This document shows positions 18,374-59,900 of a DNA stretch of 64,000 nt, piece by piece. The stretch spans positions 38,828,672 to 38,892,671 of the forward strand of contig OX031063.1 in assembly GCA_943736015.1 (NCBI GenBank), read 5' to 3'. Every line of letters begins with the position of its first letter. Position 1 is the first letter of the stretch. Below the pieces are notes generated by a model, which was not told the origin of the DNA, did no database searches, and saw only the letters and a list, made by a program, of their open reading frames with translations. Source of the DNA: Tridacna crocea. Taxonomy: Eukaryota > Mollusca > Bivalvia > Cardiida > Cardiidae. The position numbers and the translations under genes are program-made.

Positions 18374-21300
18374 TCATCTACTGTCCACACTTGGCTGAAC
18401 TTCTGTGAATAATTTCAGTCTATCTTTTAACAGCGTTACTGTAATTGGCTTCGCTTCAAACTGCTCCCCATCAAGATTAAACCACACTTCTTTTTCCTAA
18501 AATAAAACAACATTAAAATATTACTTTCTGAAAGGAACTTGCTGTAGACAAGTTATAGCAAAAATTCTTTTAGGTCGTTTTACAAAGCAATTGCATGTTT
18601 AAATAAGCCCAAGAGAGAAGGCTTTTAACTCTTTACGGAACAAAATAATTTTGACTGGTCCAAACTGAAAGGATTTGCAGACAACACATTAAATGTAGCT
18701 GAAATGATGTTTCTTGTCGGTGAAAGTGTAGGAAACCTTGTGGGAAAAGGGAAAATGCTGGTAACCATGTTTTTAATATTTTAATCTAATTTTTTTGAAA
18801 GGCTTCAACCTCAGAGTTGTGAAAACCAAAAACATGCTGTCTGATCTTGAAACTATGCTGTCCATCATTTTTTAAAATACAGTGACAACCTTCCCCCCCT
18901 CCTAGAATGCATTAGGTTCTCTTTATTAGTACGTTAACCCATTACCACACAATCCCTACTTTTGATGACCCCAAGAAAGAAGCCTTTAGAAAACATTGTA
19001 AGAAAAGGAGAAAATGCTGGTAACCAGCATTTTCTCCTTTTCCCACAATGTTTTCTACCCTTCACAAAACATATTTAAAAATTTCAGTCACTTTTATTTT
19101 GTAATCTGCAAATGCCTTCTATTTGGAGAAGCCAAACATTTTGTCGTTTGGTAATGAGTTAACAAGCATGCTGGCTTACAGACTATAATGAATTACCTCT
19201 GGTACCTCTGGAGTAAATTTCACTCTTTTCACTAAAATTTTGTCGTTACTATCATGTCCTATGTTCCACACCTTGTCCTTTAATCGTGACCATCTGAATG
19301 AAATAAAGAAAAACAACAATAAAGTAAAGGGTCCATGTTTGCCCTGAAAGGTTAAAACAACTTACAACACATTGTCAAAATATTGTATGAAAGGCAGAAA
19401 ATGTTGTCATCTGCCTACACGCTAGATTTTCTGCGAATGCTTGTAATATGAACTAATTTAAAAGTTTTGTAAATCTAATAGAGTTACAATCTGAAAGAGA
19501 CAATGCTCCAATCTCCACAGCAGCCATGTCTTTTGACAGATAGACATTCGACCTTGGTTATGAAGAAGTTCCATCCCAAAAGAACACTCATGCAGGTTAG
19601 TGATCAATTCTAACCCACTCCTTTTGATGATTAGATCATATTCAAATGATCAAGTAGAAGCACAGACAAGACTACTATAAGATTTCCATCTACAAAACTG
19701 AAAGTAGCCTACCCAAGCATCATCCTTGCAAACCTCTAAATGTGGTCTCACAAATAATTATCTACCAAACCAACGTTCAAAAAAGTGCAATGCTGATGGG
19801 AGAAAAGATAGTAACAGTTCATCATGAGTTCACTAAGAAAGCCATAGAGAATCAAAAGGAAAATATTTCCTGTACATTAACTCCTAACTCTCTGAGGTCA
19901 AATTCATTTTAGCCAACAGCATACAAAGCTCAAGACAGAGGAAGTGATTTTGATTTCAAAATTAAAAATGTTAATTGATTCTCCACCAGAACCTGTATTA
20001 GGGGTTCTCATTAGAATTGCCTTGTCAAGACAATTCTAATGAGTACAAACAACATAGGGTTTCAAAGAAAAATACATGTAATGGATTTAGAATACCATTA
20101 CTCCCCCTTATCTTGAGCTCTGGGGTCCATAAATCAAGTTCAAATTGCATATTCTGTATAAATGCTCTTAGATCTCCTCTGCTTAATAGCCTGTAAGAAC
20201 TTCTAGCCCAAAAGGTCTTCAATTTGCTTTACATAGTCCAAAATCACAGTTAAAATTGTTACAATTAATGATCATACCCTTCAGAAATAAAGGTTGACTT
20301 TGTTATTTCAGCTGGACCCAATTCCAGCTCAACACCTCTTAATTTCTGAAAAAAAAAAAATACAACAATATATTTAAACAAATAGTCCACCATTTTAATG
20401 TTTTCAATATTCTGTAATGTAGAGTTTACAGTCATAAACTACCTGGTATAAAACAAACAAAGACTGTCTACATCACAGTTAGTGTATTGTTAATTGTCAA
20501 TCATTTGGCATGATGCAGCAGCTCTATTCTAACACAATAAAATTTCGAATCATAAACTTACACCTTTTATAAATTAGACTTTCTAAGACATTTGACAACA
20601 TGGACAATTATGGAGGAAATTTTTGAAGCAATTCTATTGCTAATTCTCTAAAATTCATTAATTCTGCTGAAAAAAGATATCTTTTTTTCAAATATTTTGT
20701 AAACATTATTCACTATCAATGTATAATAACATCATTCACTATCAATGTAAAATAAATAGATTTAAACTGAAGGTAATTATCCAAAGGGTAACAGTTTTGA
20801 CCTTATCTGTGTCAGTGAAACCAGAGTTCATATTAATTTCCACCGCCTCAATGTCTCTAGTTATCACCTCATCCCCTTCACAATCATACTCCTCTTCTTC
20901 ATGCAAGCCTTCCTCTGCGACTGTAAAAATTTTTAAATATTTCATCAATCCTCAAATATGAACAGAATCATTAACCCATTACCAAACGACAATATTTTAG
21001 GCTTGTCCAAATCGAAAGAATTTGCGGACAACAAAATAAAAGTGACTGAAAATTTAAATTTTTTTTTTGTGAAGGGTAGAAAACATTGTGGGAAAAGGAG
21101 AAAATGCTGATTACCAGCATTTTCTCCTTTTCCCACAATGTTTTCAATAGGTTTCTTACTCAGGGTCGTCAAAAGTAGGGATTGTGTGGTAATGGGTTAA
21201 TCCTTATCCTGCTAAATAACTAGAATGATTTTTCATTTCAATTGGAAAAACCAACTATTGCTTTTTTAATATTTTGTTTTGGGGAATAAAATATCATTCT

Positions 21301-24300
21301 TAGTCAGTGTAGAGCCAAGATCAGACTGCATGTTCTGTGCAGTCTGATCTTGATTCTACGTTGTTTGCAAAAGGTCAGTGAGTCTGGCTTGATAGAGTCT
21401 AAGGGTTAAAACACAGGGAGAAATTGTTCCATTTAGAGCAATTTTTCCAAGTGACAAAATAATTTTCAAAAGTTTGAAATCTGCATTAGATTTTTAGTTG
21501 AATATGGCAGCTTTCAATATTTTTTTCATTTATAATACAGCATCACATAATTTGTGTGGGTCCTGAGTTTCACCAGTACTAGGTTCGGGCTCAGCACTGC
21601 CTTGCCTAAAGACACCCCAAAGTTACCACAGCCCAGAACCTCTAAGTTACCAATCCAACACATCAACTATGCAAGACACATCAGCCATGCAAGACACCTG
21701 CATGGTTGGGATAGCCATCTCAAAATGACTGATAGCCAAACCAGAGAAGAATCTTGGCCTAACAAGACTTGAACTCATTAATCAATGCCACGAGGACGGT
21801 GCATCACCCTTTGAGCAACTTCTGGTTTAGCTCAAGAAGATAAGTCTCATTTTACATAGACAAAAAAATCTTACCTTGTCTTCTAGATCTATTTCCAAAT
21901 ATGATATTTTTCCAACTCCATGGTTGCTTCGGTGTTTCTACTGGCTTGACTTCTGTTTTAGGTTTTGGTACAGCATTTTCTTCAGTTAAAGGCACATATT
22001 CAATGATACCCTTTATAGAAGGTGGCCATTTACTAAGAGTGGTCCTTAAATATGTATATCTGTGTTTAAGTGGACCAAAATACCAGTATCTGTGAAAGCA
22101 GAGATCAACAGAGAATGGATACAATTAACTCTATACCAAACAATACTGGGTTTTCATGACTGTGAAAGAAGCCTTCTGAAAACATTGTGGGTAAAGGAGA
22201 AAATGCTGGTAACCAGCATTTTCTTCTTTTCCCACAATGTTTTATACCATTCCTGAAACAAATTTCCATTTTAGAGTTACTTTAAATTTATTGTCTGCTA
22301 ATGCTTTTGATTTGGCTTGGTCTAAAATTTTGTTGTTTGGTAAAGGGTTAACTCTGTACCACACTGCAAACTTTTAGACTTCCATGTATTTCAATTTGAA
22401 AAGATTTGCAGATGATAAAATAAAATTTTAAATGTCCTCAGGTATTTGGATTTTTCTTGAAAAAGATTAAAACTAGAGCTGTCACTGAATGTGACTTTAT
22501 ACCCCTGCCAGCACTTTGACTGAAAAAAGTGTCAAGTTAAATGGGAGATAATTCCTCAACTTGGAGGAGTCAACGCTTGAAAGTTGTGTCTTGCAAATCT
22601 TTAATATATTATCAATATATGTGCAAAGTTTCAATACAATTCAATGAAAACTGTAGGGGGAGTTTGCGACACAACATTACTAGTATGTTGTAAACAGAGG
22701 GACACATGGACGGACAGACACACAAGGATGGACGGACAGACAGGCTGATTCCAGTATGCCCCCAAAACCATTCAGCTAAATTATTTCACAAAGAGCATTA
22801 TGTAGGGGTAGAATCCCTTGTTTAAACAATGCTTAGCAGCCTTTCAAAGAGAAATTCTGTCATTTGAGCTACATTCGATTTGTCACCAGCAAATTTTATG
22901 CCTTGAATTTACACAACTTTAAATTTCGTCATTTGGTAAACAGTTAAACTCACTTTGAAGTCCTTTCCTTAGCATCTCTATAAGCACCTGCCTCCATTCC
23001 ACAAAGAGCATATGTGGGACTGGTTCCACTTCCCTACATTTTGACAAAGAATATATAAAAAATGAAATCTAGGGACCATCCTTCACATAATTATCATCTT
23101 ACATTTGTTTCCATACTTCACAGATAAAGCCCAGCCACCTGATTTAACCCTTTACTCCATAGATACTCATTTCGATGCACTGCTTGTAGGAGCCTTTGGA
23201 AAACATTGTGACAAAAGGTGAAATTGCTCGTGACGAGCAATTTCACCTTTTGTCACAATGTTTTTCTATGCTATCAAAAGGTGTCATTTACACATAAGAA
23301 ACGGCTTCATCCTTGCTGTCACTTAGGGTCAATTAGAGATGCCATAGAAATGCCTTATGGGGTAAAGGATTGATGAAATAAGCAACACCCTGGCAAAAGG
23401 GGGGCTTAATGGATCTCGGTGATACCAAGCAAGTCATCACATGATCATGGATCCACTGTGGGTTCATTTTATCTAACAGCCAACTGAATCACAAGGTAAA
23501 ATGGTCCTTGAACATGAAGGAAATTGATCAATAGAAAAAAGTTTCGGCCTTGGTCAGCCTGGGCAGGCTGACTTTTGTTGATACTTTTTTGCTGATTCGC
23601 TATGGACCCTTTTCACAGGGCATAGCTAAAAAATTTTGCCTTAGCTACTCAGATGACCTGCGTTGCATTTCAAACCATGAAAAATACATGTATCTAGAAT
23701 GATCAGTGTATAATGTCCCTGAGTTCTTGCCATTCTGAATTTCTTTCTATATCATTCCATATCTAAAAGACTACATATCTAATCAGATAAAAAAGAATTC
23801 CTTCATAAAATCAAACTGCCACCCCTGGGATTTAGAATGAAATATTAATTTATTGATTTAGGTGAATACAGTCCCTGTATCTTAAAATTTCTTTCCCTGA
23901 TAAAGTCTTATGATAGAGTATTATGGCCTACTTTATATTAACCCTTTCCCAAATGACAAATTTTTGGACTAGACAAAATGGAAAGCATTTGCAGACGACA
24001 AATTTAAGGTGGCTGAAAAATTGGAATTTGTTCTGGGAAGGGTAGAAAACACTGTGGGAAAAGGAGAAAATGCTGGTTACCAGCATTTTCTCCTTTTCCT
24101 ACAGTGTTTTCAAAAGGCTTCTTTCTCAGGGGCGTCAAAAGTAGGGATTGAGTGGTAATGGGTTAATATTTACATCTCAATATTATTCAAAGTAAACTAT
24201 TGCATGAAGAAAAACCCTGTTTGCAAAAATTAGTGTATTAACACATTACCACACAACAAAATTTTAGTCTATATTGAAAGCATAACTATGCAGACAACAG

Positions 24301-27300
24301 ATTACATGCAACCAAGACCATAGCATTTGTCTTCAAAAGGGTAGACAACATCGCAGGAAAAGGAGAAATGGCCTTCCTCAAAAGGATCTAAAAACATAGT
24401 ATTGTAAAGTGTTCAGAAATATAATATGCTATCTATTATTTAATGTAAACTCTTTGAGAGCTAGGGAGATTTCAAAGTCAAACTTTCAAGGCTGCTTTGC
24501 CTAGAACTACCAATGATAAATTAGACAATGAAGTAAAATTATCAGACTGCATGATCCTTCCAGTTATTGGCATGCACCACTTACAAGCATCAGATAATGT
24601 TACCCTTTACTCTCTAAGCGAAAAAATCTAATACATATAAAAGTTATACCTGAAATTGGATGACATCCACATTCTTGGTCATACCTTTCACAACAGACAT
24701 TGCAGCATCTAGACATCGCCTGAAATTCACCCATCTAATTTATATCATAATCAAAGTCATTAAAATTCTAATTATGATATATAACAGTAAACAGTACATC
24801 TGATAAGTTAAGTTTTTACAAACAATCAACATTTTTTCATTTTCTCACAATGTTTTCTGCCCTTTCAAAGATAAATCTTATCATCTAAACCCCATATAAG
24901 TTTTTGTCTGCAAATGCTTGCACTCTGGACAATTCTTAAAAAAAAAATGAGCCAAGCTCCAAGAAAAAGGAGCTTAATTCATCTGCGAAAAATATCAATC
25001 CAGGTCAGCCTTCACAGTGCAAGCAGGCTGACCTGGACAGAAACTTTTCGCTATGGCTCAATTTTCTGTTTGTCAAAGTACCAATCTACCTTATAACTCT
25101 GTAGATTGTTAGACTTAATGGATTTTACTGATCCACTGTCATCTGATGACATCCATGACATTATGCATCACAGATATAAATGAAGCGCCCTTTTACCACA
25201 GCATGGCTCAATTTTCCGTGTAGTAATGAGTTTATATTTACCTGACATTAGATTTGTCTGGCCCGTAGAAGAAAGTTGCGAATTTGTTCTGACTGCCAAC
25301 AGGTATAATACCAATAGGAGTTTTCTTTCTAAAACTCTGAAAAAAATCAATTACCAAAGAAATGGAACATTTGTCTATTATGCAGTATAAGATCATTCTT
25401 GGCACAATTTTTCAATTTTGAAGCATTTCTTTGACTATCATCTTTACCAAATTTTCTGCCAAAGTAAACTTATGGCATAACAACTCTTCCAATCTAATTG
25501 TTAACAAACAAAGGAGAAAAGCCAGCTTGTTCTCCTTTTACAGTGATGCTTTCAAAAGCCTCTTTGCACTAGATTGTTTAAACATTGCAATGTTTGGTAA
25601 TGGCATAAGAGTTCATATCTGATTTCCTATTTTTTTAAAGAGCCATATGAACAGTAGTTTCATTATTTTTCCAAACCTTACTTATCAAAGCAGATTATTA
25701 TAAAGTTTAATGTATAAATAAAACATCTTTACCATTTATGACACAAAATATCAATAACTAATTTAACCCTTTACCCCATAAGCCATTTCTATGGTATCTC
25801 TAATTGACCCTAAATAACAGCAAGGATGAAGCTGTTTCTTATGTGTATATGGCACCTTTTGATAGCATAGAAAACATTGTGGCAAAAGGTGAAATTGCTC
25901 GTCACGAGCAATTTCACCTTTTGCCACAATGTTTTCCAAAGGCTCCTACAAGCAATGCGTAAAAATGAGTATCTATGGAGTAAAGGGTTAAATAAACAAT
26001 CAAAGTGATTTACCTTGTCATCTTTCCTCATCATACCAGTCACGAGCTGAAAAATTAGTAAAACTTACAAACAAGATCCATTTCAAAAATGATTTTTTAT
26101 TGCATTTAAATCTAGCAAATTTTGCTCTGCTTTCCACAGAGTTCTAGCTGTTCTGTTGGCAGTTCAATTTCCTCACACTTGTAAACTTCATCACAGATTG
26201 TGCAAACTCGCAAAGCTGACATGGGTCAATGCTTTTACTGTTCGATATTTTGTCCAAAAGCAAGTTTTTTCAAACAATTCCAGGCAATGAAATCAATAGT
26301 GAATTAAATGCTGGAATTTACCCTTGAAAAGGTTTGAAAACATTGTGAGAAAACGGGAAATTCTAGCAAACCACCATTTTGTAAAAGTTTTCTACCTCAG
26401 GTTTGCTAAATCAATGGATTATTTGGCAAAATATTCAAGAATTATACATGTAAACAGCAAATTCACTCATAGCCCCATAGATTTCTTTATGTGTAGTGAT
26501 GTGAGACTAGAGTAGTTGAATACAGGAAGTCACATGACAGGTAACAGACATACTAACAAATTACTAAGTCATGCACAATTCAAAGAAGGTAAAAAGTAAT
26601 GCTGTTTTTCAAAAGTCTTTGAAAATTTACAGAACTGATTGGTAAAAGGAAAACCAGCTGAATCGTAATGTAGACTGGTCCTTCAATATGCACAAAATTG
26701 AACAAGAGCAAAGAGTTTCGACCCATGTCAGTCTGAGTGGACTTTCCAGGCTGACATAGGTTGATACTATTTGTAGATGTATTAACTCTTTACCAAACAA
26801 CAAAAAGTTTGGACTACCCCAAATTGAAAGCATTTGCAGATGACACAAAAACTGACTTTTTTATTTTGGGAGGGCAGTAAACATTGTGGGAAAAGGAGAA
26901 AATGTTGGTTACCAGCATTTTTTTCCTTTTCTCACAATGTTTTCAAAAGGCTTCTTTCTATCTCAGGGTCATTAAAACTTGGGATTGTCTGGTAAAGAGT
27001 TAAACCCACTTTTTATATAGCATGGTCAATTTTTGATACAATGTACTTACCTCTAAAACTGATACATTTCCACCAGCAACAATAATAGCATCTGCATACT
27101 TCTGCTCAAATACTTTCATGTATTCTTTAATTTGGCCTTCATACTCTGTCTAAGAAATAATTATCTTTTTACCACACAATACCAACTTTTAACAACCTCA
27201 AGAAGGAAACCTTTTGAAAACTTGGTGGGAAAATAAGAAAATACTGGTACCATTTTTCCTACCTTCCAAAAACAGATTTCGGGTTACCAGCATTTTCTCC

Positions 27301-30300
27301 TTTTCACACAATGATTTCAAAAGTCTTCTGTGCCAGGGTAGTTAAAGGCAGGATTGTGTGGTAAAGTGTTAAAGTATCCTTGTAAACCCTGTAACACATA
27401 ACACAGTCTTAATGATCTGGAAGGAGAAAAAGCTTTTGTAAACTTTGTGAGGAAAGGAGAAAATGCTGTCAGTCAGATTTCTTTTGTCTTCTGCGAATGA
27501 TTTCAATTTGGAACAGTCTAAAACTTTGTCATTTGGTAAGGAGTTTACTCTTTTACCACACATACCTGACTTTTCACAAGTAAGAAATAAGCCTTAACCA
27601 GCAATTTCTCCTTTTCTTACAATATTTTCTATCCCATAAAAGTCAGAAATCTTCGTATTACCTAGATGCTTTGAACTTGGTCGAGTCCTGAGATTTGTCA
27701 TTTAGTAAAAAGATTATTGTCAACAAAAAAGTGCAGAGTTGATGGAAGTGTTATTTTCATTTGAACCATGCTCTGTGAAAACTGGGTTTAATGCATCTGC
27801 AAAAAGTATTGACCCAAGTCAGCCTGCGCAGTCCTTGCAGGCTGACCTGGGTGTGAACTTTTTGCTACTGGTCGATTTCCATGTGTCAATGAACCGGTCT
27901 TCCTCATGATTCAGTCAGTTGTTTGACAAAATGTATTTTATAGTTCCACATGCATCATGGAGATGCATTTAGGCTCCTTTTCACAAATCATTTAAATTTG
28001 TCTGTTTGGTATTGAGTGCTGTTTAAGTTTGCCATGTGGAACATTGATGAACCAAAGCTCTCTTTGTCCTACTCCATCCGTCCCTCTAAATTTGTACTTT
28101 AAGTTGAATGGCGGTCAAAAGCCCCTTCGGTCATTATCCCCTACCCTCAAAACAGGTATGGCGGTCAAAAGCCCCTTCACGATTTTGCATGGGCAGTCAA
28201 TATCCCCTTCATCAAATTTTAAAGGTGGTCAAAAGCCCCTTCGCGATTTTAGCAAGGGCGGTCATCATCCCCTTCATCCAATCTTAAAGGCGGACAAAAG
28301 CCCCTTTAAATAGGCTAGTGTTTTCCGTTGTGATTTCTAACGAAGAAATAAAATAATCTCAGTGACTTACCTGTGCATGCATTCCTATTCCCCACTTTTG
28401 TTTCTTTGCTCGATGGTGATTTACTCATGAAAATTGTTTCCTGTCGGTCTTAAACATTCAACATGTAAACGTGTGATCACTTTGAATCATAACAGATAAG
28501 TTATCTTAATCCGTCCTCAGTTTGTCTCGTCCATTTCAATAGATGTAATCCCCGTGGGGTCCCGGTTTTTTTTTACTGTATAGAATAGGACCTCGGCCTT
28601 TCTCTATGGCATGTCGTAGAAGGCGACTAAAATTACAGACAAACAGCTGCTTTCCTCGTAATTCGTAGGATTACAGCAGGCTGGGTAGTGCTTATTCCAA
28701 ATCCTATACATGTATTTTTTTTTTCGATGTAAATAAGGTTTGGAATGGGAATCAGTTGGCCTGTGGGACCCCGTGTGGTTTAATCGGGAGTATAAGAATA
28801 AACCAGTGCAGTCCCGAGATCATCACATCTGCCATTTCATCTGACGGAACAAAATTTAAGTGACAGCATGCATGTCGTAAAAGGCGACAAAAGGGGCATC
28901 ATTTTGTGTTTCGTCCATTCCTCATTTATCATGTTTGTCTTATGTTGTTGCACATATATGTTATTTTCACCTCGCATTATTGTTTACTAAGTAAGTGCGC
29001 CCAATATGACCGAAGTTGTCGACGGGCCTTAAAGCGCTATCCATTCATTCAATCGATGTAAAGACAACACCTTTTCTAATATAAAGAAAATAAATGACCA
29101 ACTTTAATAAAAATTTTCAAACTTTCTATCCGTAATTAAAATTACATGTGTAAAACTACAGACAGACGGATTTACATTTCACTCGAAAAAAAAATGGAAT
29201 TCATTGAAACAGCTTGTGGTTCAAGGAAACTTTGCTATCATGGCCATACACGTTTAAGGCAGTCTGATACTGATCTACACTGTTCTTAACGTTGTCTTGA
29301 TGTTTTGATGTCATGTGTAGGACTCGTTACCTGGAGGCTCCGGGTCTTGATTCCAAGAGCCATATAGAATGCCTTTAGAACATGTTTTGTCTGTTTTTGC
29401 AAGCCGAGTTGTGGTGGCTCAGTCGGTATTATACAGCACTTTGGAATAGGGCGTTGCTGGTTCCAATTCCTTTCCGAGGATTGATGATATTCACTCATCC
29501 TCGGATACCCCGGGGTCCATCGACCCCTGGGACAATTAATTGAATTTCTCTCGCTTTACCGCTGGCCGAAAGCTGGTTTTTCATTGGTTCCATCATCATT
29601 TTGTGATGGGCGAGTCGATGTACGCTATGACGTTTCGTATCGATTTTCGGCGGCTGATTCAAAGTTTTATTAGTCATTTGTCCCAGGGGTCGATGTAGCG
29701 TAGCAAATAGGGAGACCCCGGGGTATCCGAGGATGATATTCACTGCGATAGGATTCATACATGTACCCGTCACTGCTGACCATTGGCACTTAAATGGTTA
29801 TGTGAGAAACCATTGGAAAAAAAATGGTTTTGTGAGAAAAAAAAAAACACCCTGGGAAAGCATTGATAGGTACACTTGCCGCTACGATATAAGTCAAATA
29901 ATGTTAAAAATGGCGTTTAACGGCATACAATTAATCATCAATTATCAATTCTAGATCCACATTGGATGATTTCACACGTTCAAAATTTGTATAGAACTTA
30001 CTGTATATTGTAGTCTACTAGTATTCTATTTCAGAGCGATTATCAGACTTCAGGTCTACGGAGGGAATATTGTCGGCATGGTTACCATCCAAAGGGACTA
30101 TTGTCTGCTACTGATAAAGGGGGTTTTGACCGGCTGAAGTCATAATTTGATGAAGGGGATAATAACCGCCCTTGCAAAATAGCGAAGGGGCTTTTGACCG
30201 CCTTTAAAATTTGGTGAAGGGGATAATGACCGCCCTTGCAAAATTGCGAAGGGGCTTTTGACCGCCTTACCTGTTTTGGGGGTAGGGGATAATGACCGGA

Positions 30301-33300
30301 GGGGCTTTTGACCGTTTACCCTTTAAGTTTAACCCTTCCTACTCTCTCCTCAGTTTAAAAACCATGAAAATAAAAGCCTTTGAAAACATTATGGGAAAAG
30401 AAGAAAATGCTGGTACACAACACTGTCTCCTTTTTCCACAATGTTTTCTACCATTTTATAAACAGTTTTATCGTTTTAGACACAATTAACATATAGTCTG
30501 AAAATGCTTAAAAATTTGGTTGTTTGGTAAAGAGTTAAGAACAAAATAGCCTGATAGTGTTAAAACTATTACCTTGACAACATTCACTTCTAGTCCTGCT
30601 AGATACAAGATAGGGGCAGCATTCTTCTCAAATAATTTCTTTGCTCCTCTTAAAATAAAACAAAAAAGAAATCCCTTAAGTCTTCACCATAAGACAAAAT
30701 TTCAGACTGGTCCAAATTGAAAGCACTTGCAGACAAATTAAACGAAACTAAAAAATTGAAATTTGTTTCAAGCCGGGTAGAAAACATTGTGGGAAAAGGA
30801 GAAAAAGTAGGGATTGTGTGGTAATGGGTTCAATGATGAAAAATTTTAGACAGATCCAAATTGGAAGCATTTTTAAAGGATATATTGAAACCATGTGGCA
30901 CAGATAATAAGATTTGCCTGAAAAGAGTAAGAAAACATTGTTGGGAAAGAAGAAAATGCTAGTTACCAGCATTTCCTTCTTTTCCCATAATGTTTTCAAA
31001 AGCTTTCTTTCTATGTATCACTAAAACAATTAAACTCAGGATTGTGTGGTAAAGAGTTAAACATTTATCAAATAACATTTAGACTGGTCCATATTGAAAG
31101 GTTTGCAGATGAAGAATTAAATGTGGCCATAGTTATATAATTACCCTTTTGCCAGTATTAAACACTCTGGGAAAAGAAAAAAAAAAAAAAGACGCTGGTC
31201 ATCAGAATATCCTCCTTTTCCCTTAATGTTTTCAAGAGGCTCCATCTCAGGATTGTTGAAAAACAAGATCTTTAAAGAGTTTAACTTATCATTTTAAAGT
31301 ACTTGTGAAGACCTGATGCAATTTCTTTAATGACATAACCCACCATCCTGTTTGTTGAAAAATTACAATCCCCTGTCAGATATTCGAAAACGTTTACATG
31401 AATTATGAAAATGACATTTTGATCATTGCTGTTTTCTAAAAGAAAATGGGAAAAGGAGCAAGTGTATGTAGGGTACAAATGCTCATTTCCCCCCCCAATA
31501 TTTTTCTTTCAGATGACCCAGGGAAAGATTTTTTTTTTTTAAGAATGCTGTTGGAAAAAGCAAAATTGCTGGTAGCCAGCTTATTCTCCTTTCCCTACAA
31601 TATTTTCCAACCTTTCACAGACAATTTGCACTGTTTGACCCAAGTTTGTTTGTCAGCCACAAAAGTGTTCAATATGGTGTCTTACCCCATTACCACACAA
31701 TCCCTACTTTTGACAATCCAGAGAAAGAAGCCTTTAGAAAACATTGTGGGCAAAAGGAGAAAATGCTGGTTACCAGCATTTTCTCCTTTTCCCACAATGT
31801 TTTCTTCTCTTCACAAAGCAAATGTCAAATTTTCAGTAACGTTTGTTTTGTCGTCTGCAAATGCATTTGATTTAGACAAGAGCAAACTTTTGTCGTCTGA
31901 TAATGAGTTAAAACAAATTTCGATTTCTGAGTTACATCTAATTTGTGGTCTGCAAATTCTTTTAATTTGGACAAGTCTAAAAGTTTCGTCACTTGGTAAA
32001 GGGATTAGACAGACTGTGAGACACATAGTGTCTTACCCATGACTAGCAGCTGGGTTCAGAAAAACTGTAACTTTTCTTGTCTTACTTCCAAGCTGTATTG
32101 GCATCTCTCCATATTTCTGTAATACAAGCAAAAGAATCTGTAATATCAAAAGACAAGAAAATCAAAAACACTGGTGTTGCTTACATCTAGAGCTGTGACG
32201 AGTACTCGAGTACCCGGGTATCGGGTAGGGTAACGTTGGTACCCGGGTACTAAATCATTACCCGGGTACCCGATAATTAAAAGCATAAAAGGCGGAAAGT
32301 TTAAAAAATATATAAATTTACGTGGATACATTGACAGGAAATTTGGAATAAAAACATAGATTGATGTGAATATGGTGTATATTTTACCATCAAGTTTGCT
32401 TTGTATCGCTATTCATGGTTTAGCTGACTCTGCGAGGTTGTTGCCGGATCGCTTCCTTAGCTTCATAGGGTGTTTAAACTCAATGTGCTTTTCATGGATG
32501 AGGCACCACCCTCCCCTCTTGGTAGCTAAGTTCTATATCGCAAATCAGTGTTCACACTAACTTTTTATTTGAAGGGTACACTTACCCCCTAAGCTGTAAT
32601 TCTGGAGGTAGGGCCTCTAGGCCTAAGGTTTCATATTAGAGGGTACGACAATAATGGTTCCAACCTAGAAGTTAAGTAATCAATAATGATTTTTTGCACC
32701 ATAAAGTGTGTTATATTAAGATAACTGTGGAAAGTTATTGTTTAAAGTCATTAAAAAGCTGAAAAGAGGGTCTGAAGTGACTCTGATCGGACAATGTCGA
32801 AAGGAACATTGTGTTGTGTCATGGGTTTCCGTGTTTTCTGCACCGCGTATTTTTTCATGTGTTTTGATTCATGGATAGGTTTTTCCCCCTGATTTGATAA
32901 TAAATTATCAATAAGGGCAGCAAGCAACGTCAAATCCCGTCATTTAACACAAGTTTAGTGGATAATGAAGTTTTTTACGTTTTCTTTTTCTTTCGTGAAT
33001 TACAATTCTAGATCTACAACGCGATTTACGCAACAATTTTGCTTGAATGGGAACACTGCAAATGTTACACTTTGTCCTTTGTTTGTCTTGCAAAACACCA
33101 AAGAACTGCCAAACTCGGGATTTTGACGAAGCTTGGCTATTTGAAGCCTTGTTTAGTTGTTTTCATGTATTGGTACATGTGCAAGTGCCAGGATGCATAA
33201 AGATATACAACTACTGATGTTTCATGTAATGGGAAGTAATAACATCGGGTACTCGAGTACCCGCGGGTAATACGGCCACGGGTACCCGGGTACAAAATTT

Positions 33301-36300
33301 CTACCCGTCCCAGCTCTACTTACATCAATCAACATAATGATTACTCTGGGTCAATATCATTCTCATGACAGAAATAAACTATAACTGAATTTGACTACAC
33401 ATTACCTCTACAATCAGTCTTTCAGCAGACGACTTTCACACTGTTTAAAACTACTAAGTCTAGGATAATTTCCCATGATATGTGGGAGCAAACTAAACTT
33501 CCTTACTTACAGTAATTTAATGCAAGGGCTTTTAAGCAAACAATCACCTGACCACGGAGAAAAAAACAAAACAAAAAAATGCAATTTACCCTTGCCTCCT
33601 CACAGTACTGTCTTCTAAGCAAGTCATCTCTGAAAAAAAAAAAAAAAAAACAGACTCACTGAAGAAACTTGTTTTCTCATTATCAAATTTCTTTTGTATC
33701 TCTGTTACATTGCAAAAAAAGAAACGAAAGTGTTGGCAAATCCTTCATGCACAGTTAATCCTTTTAGCACAATGCTTTAACCCTTTCCCACACAATGACT
33801 ACTTTAGAGAACCCTTGGAAAGAAGCCTTTTGAAAACATTTACACAAAAGGAGAAAATGCTGGTGACCAGCATTTTCTCCTTTTTCCACAATATTTTCTA
33901 CCCTATCAATAAACAACTGCACCATTTGAACCACATTGAAATTGTCGTCTGCAAATGCTTTCAATTGGGACAGGGTTGGAAGTTTGTCGTCTGATAAAAG
34001 GGTTAAAAGTATTCATACATGTATCTAAATTTATTAAATGATATTTATTACCCATATTCCTAAAGAAAGCAATGTCTCTGGGGAAAAATACCCACATGTT
34101 CGAAATACAGGACGATCGATCTCGGGTACGAATATCATAAAAACGGTTTACAGTCAAAACGTCCCACCGTCAAAACGTCCCACAGTCAAAACGTCCCACT
34201 TTTGGTTAAAACGTCCCCCCAATTTGGTTAAAACGTCCCACTATTCCAAAAATTTGGTCAAAACGTCCCACTTCGAATTATTTAGTTCTTATCAGCGACT
34301 GATAAAAGTGTAAGTGGTTGATAATTTTAATATTTTTTTGTATAAATTACAATGTAACAATAAAATTGTTTCTTCACAGATTTTGTTGATGTTAATTGCA
34401 AGTGTGATAAATCGAGTATAGATGAAAAAGAAAACTGGCTAATTGGGCGACATACAATAACAAATGAACAGAGCAGAACACGCATTTTAAATACTTTCTA
34501 GTCGTAAATAGTCATTCAAAATAAAAACGTAATGGGAATCAACGTTTTTTGACATTGTTACTTTGTGCAGATAAAGCGGAATCTCGAACATTTATAAATT
34601 GCTATCGGAATATATTTCTGTGCGTTGTGTGCTCTGCAGTACTCTTGTAATCAACTGGTATTAGTACATTATATTATTCCTTAGAGTGGGAAATTTAAGA
34701 TAGATTTTATTCACTAAGTATGCACATGCATTTTGCATCACGCAAATTCATGTTAACATATTAATAGGTAATCACAAATAATCATGTACTGACTCTTAAC
34801 CTCATGATCCTTATATTTAATAAATATGAAAGAGAATGCTTTTGAAAACAGCGTTGGACAATGAGAAAACACTGGTAACAGCCTAAAGTTGCTTCTTTTT
34901 CCCTCATTAATTCTACAATATCAAAGACAACTAAAACTGTCATTTGAGCAAATGCAGTACATTGTAATTTGTTCGTGTATGTTGGCATACTTGTAATATA
35001 CTTTCATTTTGCCCCAGTCCAAAATTTCGTCGTTTTGTAAAGTATTACAAGTAATTTTCAAATGCTATATCATAAGAGAGGAAAAAAAAAAAAAAGGAAA
35101 TGTGAAAGATGGAAAGAAAGCAAGGACAATTCAAGTTTTTAGGTACAGTAAGTATCGTATACGACATTCTTGAAAGTGGCATTAGTTAGATTTGCTGCAG
35201 TATTGATCGAAGGGTCAATTAACTTTTTCAGAAGCTATATATCACTATCAAGTGTGACAAATTTGCTTTTTAACACCTAACCCTTTACACAGCCTGGGTT
35301 CCAGTTCAATCGGGGTTTAATCAACCCCCCTCCCCCTTTTATGTTCGGATTTTTTTTTTCAAAAACATGACGCATAATATTTTTGAAAAAAGTAATGGCA
35401 GAATACAAAAGAGAAAAATTATCAACCACACTGAAGAATTGGAGTCGACCAATGTTGTGTGAGAATTAAGAAAAGCCGTTAATACACGATTTCCGTTCCT
35501 GTTAAAATTTCTGCGGCCGCAATCACTATAAAGGCAAAGCCATGATAAACTTATTGTTTGTAGCTGCTTTTTATTAAATGTCCGATTTACTCATTTGGTA
35601 TGTACATGGTCAACTATTGTTCCTATAAACGGGCAAATCATTGCAAACAGTGATTGCTCTTTTCCTTCTTTGCTCCCAACAAAAAAAAAAAATTTGTCGA
35701 GAAACAATCTTGGAAAAGAATAAAATGCTGATTACTGGGATTTGTCCTTTTCTTCCGATGATATGAAAATGTTTCATTCTCTTGGTAGATAAGATTTCGG
35801 ATGGTTTGGATAAGGGTTAAATGAAAACTTAACACAATAAAATAAATCAGTTATCTCAAAACACTTCAGGCGTTCGAGCGTGTCGAATTAACATTCGTGT
35901 AGGGAGACAATATGGGCCTTAACCCTTAGCCCACGTTTATAAAAATATTGATTCTATTTAGCCTACATTAGACAATCATGATTCCAATTGGCTAAAATCG
36001 TAAAAAAAAGGGATCCATGGATATGAGTGTAGTCTGGTATTGAAGGACACAGCTACGGTATTGAATATTGATTTAAGTCATATTAATTAAGTTGAATGTC
36101 ATAAGATTTGTCGATAATTAATTTTTTGCCCTTTAAAACTATAGGTTCAGCAGGATATGGGTTAATATATATGCAAAGCCCTGTAACAATAAATTTATGA
36201 CATCATAATATTACCCATCAACTTAGAAAGTCTTCTGAAATAATCAACCAAGATTAAAGTAATTATTTTTCATAGGATATACGGGACATTCTAGGGGGAC

Positions 36301-36588
36301 GTTTTAAGGGGACGTTTTAACCAATTTGGAATGGAATAGGGGACGTTTTAACCAAAAGTGGGACGTTTTGACTGTGGGACGTTTTGACTGTGGGACGTTT
36401 TGACAGGATACCCATAAAAACATGTACGCATTCACTTGCGAAGATTCAACCTACTCATAAAGTCCTTTGGCATAATGCAAACCATAGGCTCCTACAGCAA
36501 CAATCGCAATTGATTTCTTCCAATGATTCCGCAATCTTTTGAAAAAATTCCACCTTGTAGCGGGTCTCGTGTCTTCGACGGCCGCCAT
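18374..36588 (-). CDS. AGK: Acylglycerol kinase, mitochondrial (14 coding exons, complete)
   Basis: AGK is a lipid kinase of the diacylglycerol-kinase fold that also serves as a subunit of the TIM22 carrier translocase in the mitochondrial inner membrane. Coding exons, 5' to 3': 36455-36588, 33590-33629, 32037-32116, 30573-30648, 27051-27149, 26014-26046, 25242-25336, 24650-24719, 22954-23033, 21875-22089, 20802-20920, 20278-20345, 19197-19293, 18374-18496. They sum to 1329 nt (442 residues; human protein 422), all with GT/AG borders and matching phases. Conserved stretches include NHWKKSIAIVAVGAYGL near the N-terminus (membrane segment), VTVFLNPAA, LFEKNAAPILYLAG, TPIGIIPVGSQNKF, KYWYFGPLKHR and the C-terminal VEVKLL-like segment ITVTLLKDRLKLF. 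The start is the first ATG and aligns with the family. Oddity: the GGDGT signature reads GGNVS at residues 136-140. The gene call is confident; kinase activity is doubtful. Confidence 0.96.
18625..18840 (-). mobile_element. Hairpin MITE A, right hairpin half decayed
   Basis: In the last AGK intron; left TTAA kept. Confidence 0.75.
18934..19162 (+). mobile_element. Hairpin MITE A
   Basis: TTAA on both sides; ends 34 bp from AGK exon 13 (19197). Confidence 0.92.
19294..19923. other. AGK intron sequence without recognised repeat
   Basis: A weak MITE A-like remnant lies at 19360-19475; otherwise nothing supported. Confidence 0.4.
19924..20122. mobile_element. hAT-like MITE F4
   Basis: Hairpin TTAGAATTGCCTTGTCAAGACAATTCTAA; arms diverged by several substitutions. 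Confidence 0.72.
20971..21200 (-). mobile_element. Hairpin MITE A abutting family D
   Basis: Its right TTAA (21197-21200) is also the left TTAA of the next element. Confidence 0.92.
21197..21409 (-). mobile_element. Hairpin family D
   Basis: Reads TTAATCCTTATCCTGCTAAA to ...GTCTAAGGGTTAA; the centre GATCAGACTGCATGTTCTG is near perfect. Confidence 0.85.
21545..21830 (-). mobile_element. tRNA-derived SINE, decayed
   Basis: Shares GGTCCTGAGTTTCACCAGTA, ...GCCTTGCC and a B-box-like complement TTGAACTC with the SINE at 4540. On the host strand it lies in an AGK intron. Confidence 0.6.
22125..22351 (+). mobile_element. Hairpin MITE A
   Basis: TTAA-flanked; starts 35 bp upstream (genomic right) of the AGK exon 10 acceptor side. 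Its right TTAA is reused by the next fragment. Confidence 0.9.
22348..22949. mobile_element. Two MITE A long arms flanking another repeat
   Basis: The arms 22348-22470 (minus) and 22826-22949 (plus) face each other around the repeat at 22474-22822. Both are long arms, so this is not one simple split copy. Confidence 0.6.
22474..22822. repeat. Dispersed repeat with GGACGGACAGACA motif
   Basis: Contains TAGAGCTGTCACTGAATGTG, then GGACGGACAGAC runs and TGATTCCAGTATGCCCCC. This type is common in bivalve DNA; the class is unknown to me. Confidence 0.55.
23144..23372 (+). mobile_element. Hairpin MITE B
   Basis: Left TTAA kept, right end mutated to ATTGA; centre perfect. Confidence 0.9.
23401..23630. 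mobile_element. Foldback family F5
   Basis: GGTCAGCCTGGGCAGGCTGAC core; arms carry AAAGTTTCGGCC and GATACTTTTTTGCTGAT. Confidence 0.6.
23938..24166 (-). mobile_element. Hairpin MITE A, full length
   Basis: TTAA-flanked with an intact centre; left end reads CCCTTTCCCAAAT, like family C, so end types are mixed. Confidence 0.9.
24238..24414 (-). mobile_element. Hairpin MITE A, hairpin half deleted
   Basis: Left arm and AGGAGAAATGG remain. Confidence 0.65.
24945..25190. mobile_element. Foldback family F5
   Basis: CAGGTCAGCCTTCACAGTGC pairs with GCAGGCTGACCTG; arms carry ATCTGCGAAAAATATC and AAACTTTTCGC. Confidence 0.65.
25763..25991 (-). mobile_element. Hairpin MITE B, full length
   Basis: TTAA-flanked, centre perfect; ends 23 bp from AGK exon 6 (26014). 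Confidence 0.93.
26300..26440 (+). mobile_element. Hairpin MITE, decayed
   Basis: TTTGAAAACATTGTGAGAAAAC and a mutated right half. Confidence 0.5.
26650..26785. mobile_element. Foldback family F5
   Basis: CATGTCAGTCTGAGTGGACT with CCAGGCTGACATAGG. Confidence 0.58.
26782..27003 (-). mobile_element. Hairpin MITE A
   Basis: TTAA-flanked; ends 48 bp from AGK exon 5. Confidence 0.9.
27051..27149 (-). CDS. AGK: AGK exon 5, with altered kinase signature
   Basis: This 33-codon exon begins TEYEGQIKEYMKVFEQKYAD and ends AIIVAGGNVSVLE, joining LVTGMMRKDDK in exon 6. In human AGK the matching stretch is VAGGDGTLQE followed by VVTG, so alignment on both sides of the motif is unambiguous. GGDGT binds nucleotide and metal in the diacylglycerol-kinase family; here the Asp, Gly and Thr are Asn, Val and Ser. 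The splice acceptor (TTAG) and donor (GTAAGT) are normal and no other frame restores the motif. Confidence 0.93.
27168..27712. mobile_element. Cluster of three decayed MITE A copies
   Basis: Copies at about 27168-27372, 27395-27546 and 27546-27712 follow one another. Each has arm or hairpin losses. Confidence 0.65.
27745..27980. mobile_element. Foldback family F5
   Basis: AAGTCAGCCTGCGCAGTCCT with TGCAGGCTGACCTGG; one of the better copies. Confidence 0.68.
28549..29053 (+). mobile_element. ~500-bp retroposon with (ATTC)n tail, second copy
   Basis: It starts at the same base as the copy at 3069. TCAATAGATGTAA before it and TCAATCGATGTAA after it form a 12-13 bp duplication with one mismatch. 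The two copies look close in sequence, so the family was probably active fairly recently. Confidence 0.82.
29290..29790 (+). mobile_element. SINE-like repeat split by a MITE
   Basis: GTGGCTCAGTCGGTATTATA then GCTGGTTCCAATTCC gives a tRNA-like layout. It is broken at 29496 and resumes at 29736 with ATATTCACTGCG. Confidence 0.5.
29496..29735. mobile_element. 240-bp MITE, Mutator-like (9-bp duplication)
   Basis: Terminal inverted repeats begin CATCCTCGGATACCCCGGGG (22 bp). After an 18-bp insert on one side, CATCGACCCCTGGGAC repeats in both arms. ATATTCACT flanks at 29487-29495 and 29736-29744. Confidence 0.88.
30329..30538 (+). mobile_element. Hairpin MITE A, diverged
   Basis: TTAA-flanked; ends 35 bp from AGK exon 4. 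Its left TTAA overlaps the end of the foldback element's target duplication. Confidence 0.8.
30679..31284 (-). mobile_element. Three MITE A copies in a row
   Basis: Copies 30679-30831 (right hairpin half deleted), 30831-31060 and 31057-31284. The last two share TTAA at 31057. Confidence 0.75.
31548..32009 (+). mobile_element. MITE A cluster: decayed copy, good copy, solo arm
   Basis: 31548-31690 is decayed; 31686-31911 is near full length; 31908-32009 is an isolated long arm ending GGTAAAGGGATTA, 28 bp from AGK exon 3. Confidence 0.8.
32188..33318. mobile_element. 1.13-kb non-autonomous hAT element
   Basis: Termini TAGAGCTGTGACGAGTACTC and, inverted, TAGAGCTGGGACGGGTAG; CTTACATC is duplicated at 32180-32187 and 33319-33326 (8 bp, typical of hAT). 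Subterminal regions carry many GTACCCGGGTAC-type palindromes. No transposase ORF. Located in AGK intron 2. Confidence 0.9.
33777..34006 (+). mobile_element. Hairpin MITE A
   Basis: TTAA-flanked; in AGK intron 1. Confidence 0.9.
34145..36412. mobile_element. 2.27-kb foldback element with iterated GTCAAAACGTCCC ends
   Basis: The left arm (34145-34270) and right arm (about 36295-36412) are inverted, each with six GTCAAAACGTCCC or GTTAAAACGTCCC units. Outer ends read GGTTTACAGTCAAAAC and GGTATCCTGTCAAAAC. CATAAAAAC flanks at 34136-34144 and 36413-36421 region (9 bp, last bases 36413-36421). It lies in AGK intron 1, ending 34 bp from exon 1. The interior is non-coding and has decayed MITE A pieces at about 34800-35045 and 35640-35820. 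Confidence 0.85.
35919..36165. mobile_element. TTAA-flanked element related to family D, no hairpin
   Basis: Starts TTAACCCTTAGCCCACG and ends TTCAGCAGGATATGGGTTAA; the right end matches family D, but the centre lacks the palindrome. Confidence 0.6.
36455..36588 (-). CDS. AGK: AGK first coding exon
   Basis: The ATG at 36588 opens MAAVEDTRPATRWNFFKRLR, followed by NHWKKSIAIVAVGAYGLHYA. The basic stretch before a hydrophobic segment (about residues 26-40) matches the mitochondrial targeting and inner-membrane anchor region of the family. The exon ends within a codon at GTAGGT. No TATA-like box is obvious upstream on this strand. Confidence 0.93.
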
Positions 36589-56900: not shown

Positions 56901-59900
56901 AAATTGCTTCATTGCAGCACACAGATGACCAGGAGCCTACATACACACATTACGATGAAGACGATGATTTCTTGGATGAAACATTTGATGTGTCTGTAGC
57001 AGACTTCTCCTTGAAAACTTCATCTAGTCAATATCCACTAAAATGTCGTTCATTGTATGAGTTCAAGGTAAGTGCTCATTTAACCCTTTCCCAAACAACA
57101 AAGCTTTTGACTTGCAAAATTAAAGGCTTTTACAGACAACAAATTCAGTGTTACTCAAAAACTGAAGTTTTATTTTGGTGGGATAGAAAACATTTGTGGG
57201 AAAATGAGAAAATGCTGGTAACAGCATTTTCTCGTTTTCCTACAATGTTTTCAAAAGGCTTCTTCCCTACAGGGTTGTGAAAACTAGTGATTGTTTAGTA
57301 AAGGCTTAATAGGTATATGGAGGGGTGTGTGATACATGTATTTGATACAATTAAATGAGCTATACTTTGACACAAGGGGTTGTATGGCATCTTCCTCATG
57401 CATCATGCCAAGCACGTTATAATATACTACTCACACTTTGATAGGAATCACTTACATGTTTCAGTGTGGGTATATATGTTACAACGGTTTTGCGTTAACT
57501 TTACTACACAATAAAATTCTGTCAAAGTTGAAAGAATTTGCTGACTAAAAACCAAATGCAACATACAATATGACGTCTGTCATAGGTCAAAAAACATTGT
57601 GGGAAAAGGAGAAAATGCTAGTATCCAGCATTTTCTCCTATTCCAATAATGTTTTTCAAAGGCTTCTTTCTTAGTGTCTTTAACACTCGACTGTTTTTGG
57701 TAAAGAGCAAACGATCCATTTCCTCTGGCGATTTAATTGATCAGTGTGGTAATATAACATATTGTAAAACTATACGTGATACATGTCACATATAGATCTA
57801 GGGTAAATCAGATAGGGTGATCTCTAGCAAATTTTGAGTAGTATAGTTGAATAAAGGATAAAAAATGATTTCGTTTTACACCAGAATTAATCATAATGTT
57901 GAGTGGTATTTTGACATGCTGAAATTGAAATTTCTCCATTGCTAAATTCGCCTAGGAGCAGCGTGCAAGGACTGAGCAGGCTGGTCCGTGTCAATACTTT
58001 TTGTAGATGTATTAGACCCTTTATCACAGCACATGGCTTAACTCTTTACCAAACAATCCCAGGTTTTTATGACCTGGAGATAGAAGCCTTTTGAAAACAT
58101 TGTGGGAAAAGGAGAAAATGCTGGTAACCAGCATTTCCTCCATTTCCCACAATGTTTTCTTCCCCATCCAAAACAAAAATCATCATTTCAGCTGAATTTA
58201 ATTTGTCGTCTGCAAATTCTTTCAATTTGAACCAATCTAATTTTTTGTCGTTTGGTAAAGGGTTAAATACAATTGGGGTTATGGTGGAATTCATCTATAT
58301 GCCCGTCTGTTGGCAAGTTCTTGTTCATTTACATTGCCCTCAGAAGCATCTGGAATTACTCAAGCTTGCTTTAGGATGAAATGAGGATAGGGGAAGCATT
58401 GAAATGGAAGTTTCAGATATTATATGGTTTGCAACATGCGAAAAAAGACATTCAGACATTTGTGTAAAGTTTCATCTCGGATTAGTCTGCGTAGTTGGCA
58501 CAGGCTAATCGGAAACAACACTTTAAGTTCTCATGTAATTTTCTGTTTTGTGCAAGTCTACTGTAGCACAAAATCGAATGTAGCCACAAGTGTCGTCTCG
58601 GATCAATCTGTGCGGACTGCACAGGCTGATCCTGGACAACACTTTATGCAAATGTCTGATTGTCCCTTTTCGGGTGTTGCAGGTCATATATGAAAGTGTT
58701 AAAAATATGCTTGAACTTGCATCATGGGAGTCTATAGAGTAGGGAAGGAATTAAAAGTTCTTATTTTGTAACATTTAACCCATTACCAAACAATCTCTAC
58801 TTTTGACTACCCTGAGAAAGAACCCTTTAGAAAACATTGTGGGAAAAGGAGAAAATACTGGTAACCAGCATTTTCTCCTTTTCCCACAATGTTTTCTAAC
58901 CTTCACAAAACAAATGTCAAATTTTCAGTCACTTTTCTTTTGTCGTCTGCAAATGCTTTCGATTTGGAAAAGCCTAAAATATTGTTGTTTGGTAATGAGT
59001 TAAATGACAGTGAGTTTTCTGTATTCTCATAGGCCAGCAACCCTGATGAATTAGACATGATGGAAAATGAAGAATTAGAAATCATAGCCAATGGGGATGG
59101 GGATGGCTGGGTTAGAGTAAGTAACAGTAGATTCCATTTTTATATTCCTGAAGAGCCATATTATGTTGTGGCCCCGGCTGTCCATCTTTTTATCCGTCTG
59201 ACTGTTAGTAATTGCTTACGTGTGCATCTCCTCCTACAGTTTTTATTGGAATAGGTTGAAACTTACCAAAATGAATCTTAATGATACATGTATATATTTG
59301 TGCATGTGACTTTTAAAATTGGGATCTCTGTTGGCGTTTTTGATTTTAGCTAATTTCAGAGACAAGCCTCTTTGGACTTGTATGTGTTGCTCTGTGAAGC
59401 TCTTGTTATTGTCTTCATTTTATAGTATGTTATCTCATGTGATATGGCAGTGAATAAGCATGAAAGTAAAATTTTCATCAGTTCAGTAGTTGTTGTATAC
59501 GTCTTTCTTGTTATCAACGTTATCTTGATCATTGACAAGGTTACTGTATAATTGTAACTGTGGTTAAGCACTAGAATTAGAAAAGACACCAAGAAACATT
59601 CATCAATACACAGCTTTTGAAAAATGAGAGACAATTACAAATACTATGCTTGTAATGTGTTACCTTACTTTCTGGACACCATGTACTTTGCTATTAATGT
59701 GCTCTCATTCCAGGCAAAGAATTCAGCAGGTATGATAGGTTTTATTCCAGAGAATTACATTGTGATGTCTGATGATGGGGTACAAGGGCCAGTGGACCAA
59801 CCAGATATTGTTGTCTCTAGTGAGGGTAAGTTCATCTACAAAGATGTAGTTGTAAAAGTTGTCCTTAACCCTTTACCAAACAACCCTGGTTTTCACGACC

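What the first reader, a model, noticed from the sequence alone, without database searches (positions are those of the whole stretch)
27051..27149. AGK has lost its kinase signature (GGDGT is GGNVS)
Seen: residues 134-143 read VAGGNVSVLE, flanked by well-aligned family sequence, with normal splice sites and an otherwise intact 442-residue frame. Known: GGDGT is the nucleotide/metal-binding signature of the diacylglycerol-kinase family, and AGK also has a kinase-independent role in the TIM22 complex. Inference: this lineage may keep AGK only as a translocase subunit, which would be a natural separation of its two functions.
Basis: partly seen in the sequence, partly recalled or inferred. Interest (0 to 1): 0.78.

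Follow-up and report, generated by a model that had tools for sequence, protein, structure and literature searches.

The report
AGK subunit without its kinase signature
This animal genome has a single, intact gene for a mitochondrial protein that in humans is both a lipid kinase and part of a protein-import machine, and its kinase active-site signature has been replaced, so it probably only does the import job.

Summary
Confirmed: the minus strand encodes a 14-exon, 442-residue acylglycerol kinase (AGK) orthologue with an open frame. Residues 136-140 read GGNVS where human AGK has GGDGT (residues 123-127). The valine sits at human G126, the residue mutated (G126E) to make kinase-dead AGK; the asparagine sits at D125. 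At least 6 substitutions and no indel separate GGNVSVLE from GGDGTLQE, so a one-base error cannot explain it. No second AGK and no alternative GGDGT exon was found. The 7 motif-bearing exons of other lipid kinases found in the genome all keep GDG (the search that found them favours such exons). Tim22 and Tim29, AGK's partners in humans, are encoded. The N-terminal helix, kinase fold, C-terminal domain and last acidic motif (LDGE) are retained. Best reading: an AGK that has lost lipid-kinase activity and is kept for its kinase-independent TIM22 role, parallel to fungal Tim54, which a published study considers an AGK orthologue that lost the kinase domain. Kinase death and TIM22 membership are inferred. 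Age and spread could not be tested: no other animal genome was available. New variant of a known kind.

The parts
18374..36588 (-). AGK orthologue gene, 14 coding exons, 442 aa
   Evidence: Spliced frame; best solved-structure match human AGK 7cgp_B E 8.3e-66; Pfam AGK_C and DAGK_cat over cut-off
36455..36588 (-). Exon 1: start codon and N-terminal basic/hydrophobic helix (NFFKRLRNHWKK...)
   Evidence: residues 15-110 (exons 1-4) align to human AGK 4-99, 50 of 96 identical
33590..33629 (-). Exon 2
32037..32116 (-). Exon 3: LNP motif kept; human CKGK reads SHGG here
30573..30648 (-). Exon 4
27051..27149 (-). Exon 5: carries the altered signature
27060..27074 (-). GGNVS in place of GGDGT (residues 136-140; human 123-127)
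26014..26046 (-). Exon 6
25242..25336 (-). Exon 7: PIGIIPVGSQNKF, the motif-4 region
24650..24719 (-). Exon 8
22954..23033 (-). Exon 9
21875..22089 (-). Exon 10: YWYFGPLK..., within the AGK-specific C-terminal domain
20802..20920 (-). Exon 11: acidic, poorly conserved segment; weak GTCAAA donor
   Evidence: 5 of 40 identical to human
20278..20345 (-). Exon 12
19197..19293 (-). Exon 13
18374..18496 (-). Exon 14: LDGE (retained acidic motif 5, residues 410-413) and stop codon
   Evidence: role of the motif from PMC4466670 section 5

Best explanation
This is the only AGK found in the genome and it is a pseudo-lipid-kinase: the fold and the parts used outside catalysis are kept, but the phosphate/metal loop has lost the aspartate and the second glycine, so it should not phosphorylate acylglycerols. 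It most likely works as a structural subunit of the TIM22 carrier translocase in the mitochondrial inner membrane, together with Tim22 and Tim29. Phosphatidic acid from diacylglycerol would then come from DGK genes that keep the motif. Shown: open gene, motif change, no second copy found, partners encoded, other kinases with the motif. Inferred: catalytic death, TIM22 function, compensation by DGKs.
For: Open 442-codon frame with 134 of 370 aligned residues identical to human AGK 35-409. V139 aligns to human G126 and N138 to D125; G126E is described as eliminating kinase activity with TIM22 integrity maintained, and mutant mouse livers were like wild type (PMC9065199 passages). In human SK1 the motif SGDGLMHE is the centre of the ATP pocket; alanine mutation of the residues predicted to hydrogen-bond ATP, Asp81 and Gly82 among them, abolished or substantially reduced activity (PMC4466670 section 5). 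Of 10 DAGK_cat matches in the genome at E <= 0.001, 7 span the motif and 7 of 7 keep GDG; the other 3 are exons without the motif position. The spliced protein gave 11 matches at E <= 1, 11 of 11 inside this gene; AGK_C gave 2, both here, one of them below its cut-off. A Tim22 exon (E 3.5e-19 to 7cgp_A) and Tim29 (E 1.8e-25 to 7cgp_C) are encoded. Residues 15-110 are 52% identical to human (50 of 96) against 36% for the whole alignment.
Against: No activity, localisation or interaction data. DAGK_cat still scores 74.5 bits (human segment 87.5), and exon 5 as a whole is well conserved (15 of 31). Asn79, Thr111, Glu143 and the DGE motif of the ATP/Mg site remain, so the pocket is not wholly eroded. 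Human AGK itself departs from SK1 at motif 4, so the AGK pocket may tolerate changes. A review reports mitochondrial damage in G126E cells, which would argue that kinase activity matters (PMC8339474 passages). The DAGK_cat search did not list this gene itself, so it favours motif-bearing exons and the 7 of 7 control leans towards GDG. No orthologues from related animals were available to show that the change is fixed and old.
Confidence: 0.7

Rival explanations
1. The protein is still a lipid kinase with an unorthodox phosphate loop; asparagine and the retained DGE acids suffice for (perhaps weak) catalysis.
For: Other pocket residues are kept (N79, T111, E143, LDGE 410-413) and the DAGK_cat domain scores far above cut-off.
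Against: A valine replaces the glycine of the phosphate loop at the G126 position; G126E is described as abolishing AGK activity and alanine mutants at the matching SK1 positions abolish or strongly reduce activity. Two lysines of the first loop, kept in human AGK and SK1, are also changed (human K73 to H84, K75 to G86).
Confidence: 0.15
2. Assembly or sequencing error, or a rare individual allele.
For: Only one assembly and no reads were available.
Against: At least 6 substitutions without frame change against codons for the human residues, 3 within D-G-T alone; the exon is in frame, with clean splice sites; other kinase exons of the same assembly carry the motif.
Confidence: 0.04
3. A GGDGT-bearing form exists: mutually exclusive exon or second AGK gene.
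For: Introns are long and mRNA was not seen; the genome search scores only the best candidates, so counts are lower bounds.
Against: Four motif-pattern matches in six frames of the window, none in an AGK-like frame; tblastn with human AGK found the known exons plus one chance-like plus-strand stretch at 59051-59101; no second AGK or AGK_C in the 1.05 Gb assembly at E <= 1.
Confidence: 0.04
4. The protein became a lipid or nucleotide sensor rather than a purely structural subunit: the pocket binds acylglycerol without turnover and reports lipid state to TIM22.
For: Retention of the DAGK_cat and AGK_C domains and the acidic LDGE motif, although catalysis should be lost.
Against: No direct evidence; the retained parts may simply be needed for folding.
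Confidence: 0.07

Closest known systems
Human AGK (MuLK), subunit of TIM22 (PDB 7cgp chain B)
   Same: Similar along nearly the whole length: N-terminal helix, DAGK_cat, AGK_C
   Different: GGDGT replaced by GGNVS; CKGK loop reads SHGG
Engineered kinase-dead AGK G126E
   Same: Same residue hit; described as keeping TIM22 intact (PMC9065199 passages)
   Different: Natural, with further changes in the loop
Fungal Tim54
   Same: Published as a divergent AGK orthologue in TIM22 that lost the kinase domain (PMC7523481); the window protein matches the Tim54 Pfam model at E 6.7e-8, 32.2 bits, below its cut-off of 34.7
   Different: Tim54's kinase domain is reported as virtually undetectable; here the domain is clear and the active-site loops have changed
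Other DAGK_cat kinases of the same genome (DGK-, CERK- and SPHK-like; names partly from recall)
   Same: DAGK_cat family
   Different: The 7 motif-bearing exons found keep GDG

Membership tests
AGK orthologue group | Full-length best similarity to AGK rather than to other DAGK_cat kinases | tested here: met
   7cgp_B E 8.3e-66; next best SPHK1 E 1.6e-8. Only solved structures were compared; no tree was made.
AGK orthologue group | AGK-specific C-terminal domain (PF19712) | tested here: met
   97.6 bits, cut-off 27
[quoted passage not shown]
   Sequence only: residues 15-110 align to human 4-99, E 1.9e-26; membrane insertion not tested
Active DAGK-type lipid kinase | GGDG nucleotide/metal loop | tested here: not met
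   GGNVS; not filed as an active lipid kinase
Active DAGK-type lipid kinase | DAGK_cat domain by profile | tested here: met
   74.5 bits, cut-off 23.6
Active DAGK-type lipid kinase | Acidic motif 5 (DGE) | tested here: met
   LDGE, residues 410-413; role from PMC4466670
Active DAGK-type lipid kinase | Phosphorylates MAG/DAG | not testable with these tools
   Needs an enzyme assay
TIM22 complex subunit | Partner subunits Tim22 and Tim29 encoded | tested here: met
TIM22 complex subunit | Physical incorporation into the complex | not testable with these tools
   Needs native gel or pull-down
Tim54 | Pfam Tim54 over curated cut-off | tested here: not met
   32.2 bits, cut-off 34.7; on comparable segments 29.6 bits for the window protein and 16.2 for human AGK

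The most novel reading that the evidence does not exclude
A whole animal clade has converted AGK into a purely structural or sensing TIM22 subunit, an old and fixed loss of the lipid kinase that parallels, independently, the step fungi took on the way to Tim54. This would show that the import role alone is enough to conserve AGK over long times.
Probability: 0.45. Interest if true: 0.72.

Novelty: new variant of a known kind. Interest (0 to 1): 0.6.

Why it matters
Whether Sengers syndrome (AGK loss) comes mainly from loss of lipid kinase or of protein import is stated as undetermined (PMC8708263 passages). A natural AGK that keeps the fold and has its partners but lacks the catalytic loop is a ready separation-of-function protein: if it restores carrier import in AGK-null cells, the import role can be studied without kinase activity. 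It would also be an intermediate step of the kind expected on the AGK-to-Tim54 route. Domain-level annotation of the protein would miss it, since the Pfam kinase domain still scores well over cut-off.

Tried and rejected
Single-base error or frameshift: rejected (at least 6 substitutions, no indel, other frames do not give the motif). Alternative exon or second gene: searched, none found (the stray matches are told in the observation check). General loss of the motif in this genome or assembly: rejected on 7 of 7 exons, with the caveat that the search did not list this AGK gene itself and so favours motif-bearing exons. Animal AGK sequences hidden in other collections: a scan of viral contigs with the AGK protein matched nothing, and a scan of genome contigs gave 6 pattern matches, none a relative; so the state in sister species stays untested, and no dN/dS or tree could be made. 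Structure prediction was not run: the spliced protein does not stand letter for letter in the DNA, and no relatives were at hand for an alignment. Literature: 0 papers in the held library with acylglycerol kinase + TIM22 + GGDGT, 0 with acylglycerol kinase + mollus, 1 with acylglycerol kinase + bivalv, unrelated by its listing; of 85 papers with two of acylglycerol kinase, pseudokinase, TIM22, I saw the listing of 10 and none names a natural loss. One search was too wide to be useful.

Full report
The minus strand at 27149-27051 encodes TEYEGQIKEYMKVFEQKYADAIIVAGGNVSVLE. I rebuilt the gene from the window: exon 1 (36588-36455) starts with ATG and encodes the N-terminal helix, and 13 further exons end at a stop at 18374. 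The spliced frame is 1329 nt, 442 residues, with AG at 13 of 13 acceptors and GT at 13 of 13 donors; the donor of exon 11 (GTCAAA) is weak.

The protein is an AGK. Its best solved-structure match is human AGK from the TIM22 complex (7cgp_B, E 8.3e-66, residues 35-409), well ahead of sphingosine kinase 1 (E 1.6e-8). Residues 15-110 align with human 4-99 (E 1.9e-26). Pfam gives AGK_C (97.6 bits) and DAGK_cat (74.5 bits), both over cut-off. Overall 134 of 370 aligned residues are identical to human 35-409 (36%), and 50 of 96 in residues 15-110 (52%).

The signature is really altered. Aligned without gap, GGDGTLQE (human 123-130) is GGNVSVLE here, so D125 is N138, G126 is V139 and T127 is S140. 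At least six base substitutions separate the codons, three of them in D-G-T, with no indel. In the first loop the human CKGK (72-75) reads SHGG. Other residues that the SK1 study lists for the pocket are kept: N79, T111, E143 and the D and E of LDGE (410-413). The change is therefore focused on the phosphate loops, not general decay. Identity to human is 5 of 7 just before the motif, 3 of 8 in it and 4 of 8 after it, and 15 of 31 over exon 5: a modest local drop on few residues.

Consequence for catalysis. In human SK1 the corresponding SGDGLMHE is the centre of the ATP pocket, and alanine mutation of the residues predicted to hydrogen-bond ATP, among them Asp81 and Gly82, abolished or substantially reduced activity (PMC4466670, section 5 and passages read). 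In AGK itself, G126E is described as eliminating kinase activity with TIM22 integrity maintained, and knock-in mouse livers looked like wild type (PMC9065199, passages). Against this, a review says that G126E cells show damage of mitochondrial ultrastructure (PMC8339474, passages). [quoted passage not shown] Loss of activity is thus well motivated but not measured.

It looks specific to AGK. The genome (1.05 Gb, 31 contigs) has 10 DAGK_cat matches at E <= 0.001. Seven span the motif, and all seven keep GDG: GGDGT in L001, L032 and L035; GGDGM in L031, L033 and L034; SGDGL in L029. The other three (L005, L007, L030) are exons with PLGTGND or PFGTGND and no motif position. This control leans: one search did not list the window's AGK, so an exon-by-exon profile search favours exons that keep the motif. 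From recall I read L031, L033, L034 and L035 as ceramide-kinase-like and the GTGND type as DGK; the SGDGL exon's best solved-structure match is SPHK1, weakly (E 0.055).

No second AGK was found. The spliced protein matched 11 places at E <= 1, all inside this gene; AGK_C matched 2, both here. The six-frame pattern search gave 4 matches, none in an AGK-like frame. tblastn with human AGK found exons of this gene and one short plus-strand stretch at 59051-59101 (E 0.32), which I take as chance. The genome tool scores only the best candidates, so absence is strong but not absolute.

The translocase partners are encoded. Tim29 has a hit at E 1.2e-48, and its translated stretch matches human Tim29 of 7cgp (E 1.8e-25). 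One of six Tim17-family matches (3 of 6 over cut-off) is Tim22 (E 3.5e-19 to 7cgp_A). Small-Tim family matches number 8, not sorted further. This fits a TIM22 complex of the animal type, but presence of genes does not prove assembly.

Precedent. Munoz-Gomez et al. (PMC7523481; parts 1-2 of 4 and passages read) conclude that fungal Tim54 is likely a divergent AGK that lost the kinase domain, and that holozoan AGK retains it. The window protein matches the Tim54 profile at E 6.7e-8 (32.2 bits, below the 34.7 cut-off); on comparable segments it scores 29.6 bits against 16.2 for human AGK. The match covers the part before the catalytic loop, so it speaks for common ancestry and not for kinase loss. 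What is new here is an AGK caught with a recognisable kinase domain but without the catalytic signature.

Limits. No other animal genome was available, and scans of viral and prokaryote collections gave no relative. Searches of the held library (listings only, 10 of 85) showed no paper that describes this, but the library lacks most subscription journals.

Verdict. Observation confirmed; interpretation plausible and partly supported. The best explanation is a catalytically dead AGK retained for TIM22, with confidence 0.7.

Noticed in passing
window 955-61964, many places, including 8 of the 13 AGK introns: A palindromic element (core TGCTGGTAACCAGCATTTTC, in a longer inverted repeat seen) gives 96 matches with up to 3 mismatches in 64 kb, most sites counted on both strands, against 0.01 expected; it looks like a very abundant short inverted-repeat element.
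   Followed up: partly
L031, L033, L034, L035 (G000 C7, C4, C4, C14): Four separate ceramide-kinase-like exons (GGDGM or GGDGT followed by GIIPAG, GVIPCG, GIVPAG or GIIPVG; naming from recall), which suggests more than one CERK-type gene in this genome.
   Followed up: no
window 32037-32116: The first nucleotide loop of AGK is changed too: human CKGK reads SHGG.
   Followed up: partly
window 20802-20920: Exon 11 is acidic, poorly conserved (5 of 40 identical to human) and ends in a weak GTCAAA donor, so its exact 3' border is uncertain.
   Followed up: no
window 18374-36588: The window AGK scores better than human AGK against the fungal Tim54 profile (29.6 against 16.2 bits on comparable segments).
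   Followed up: partly
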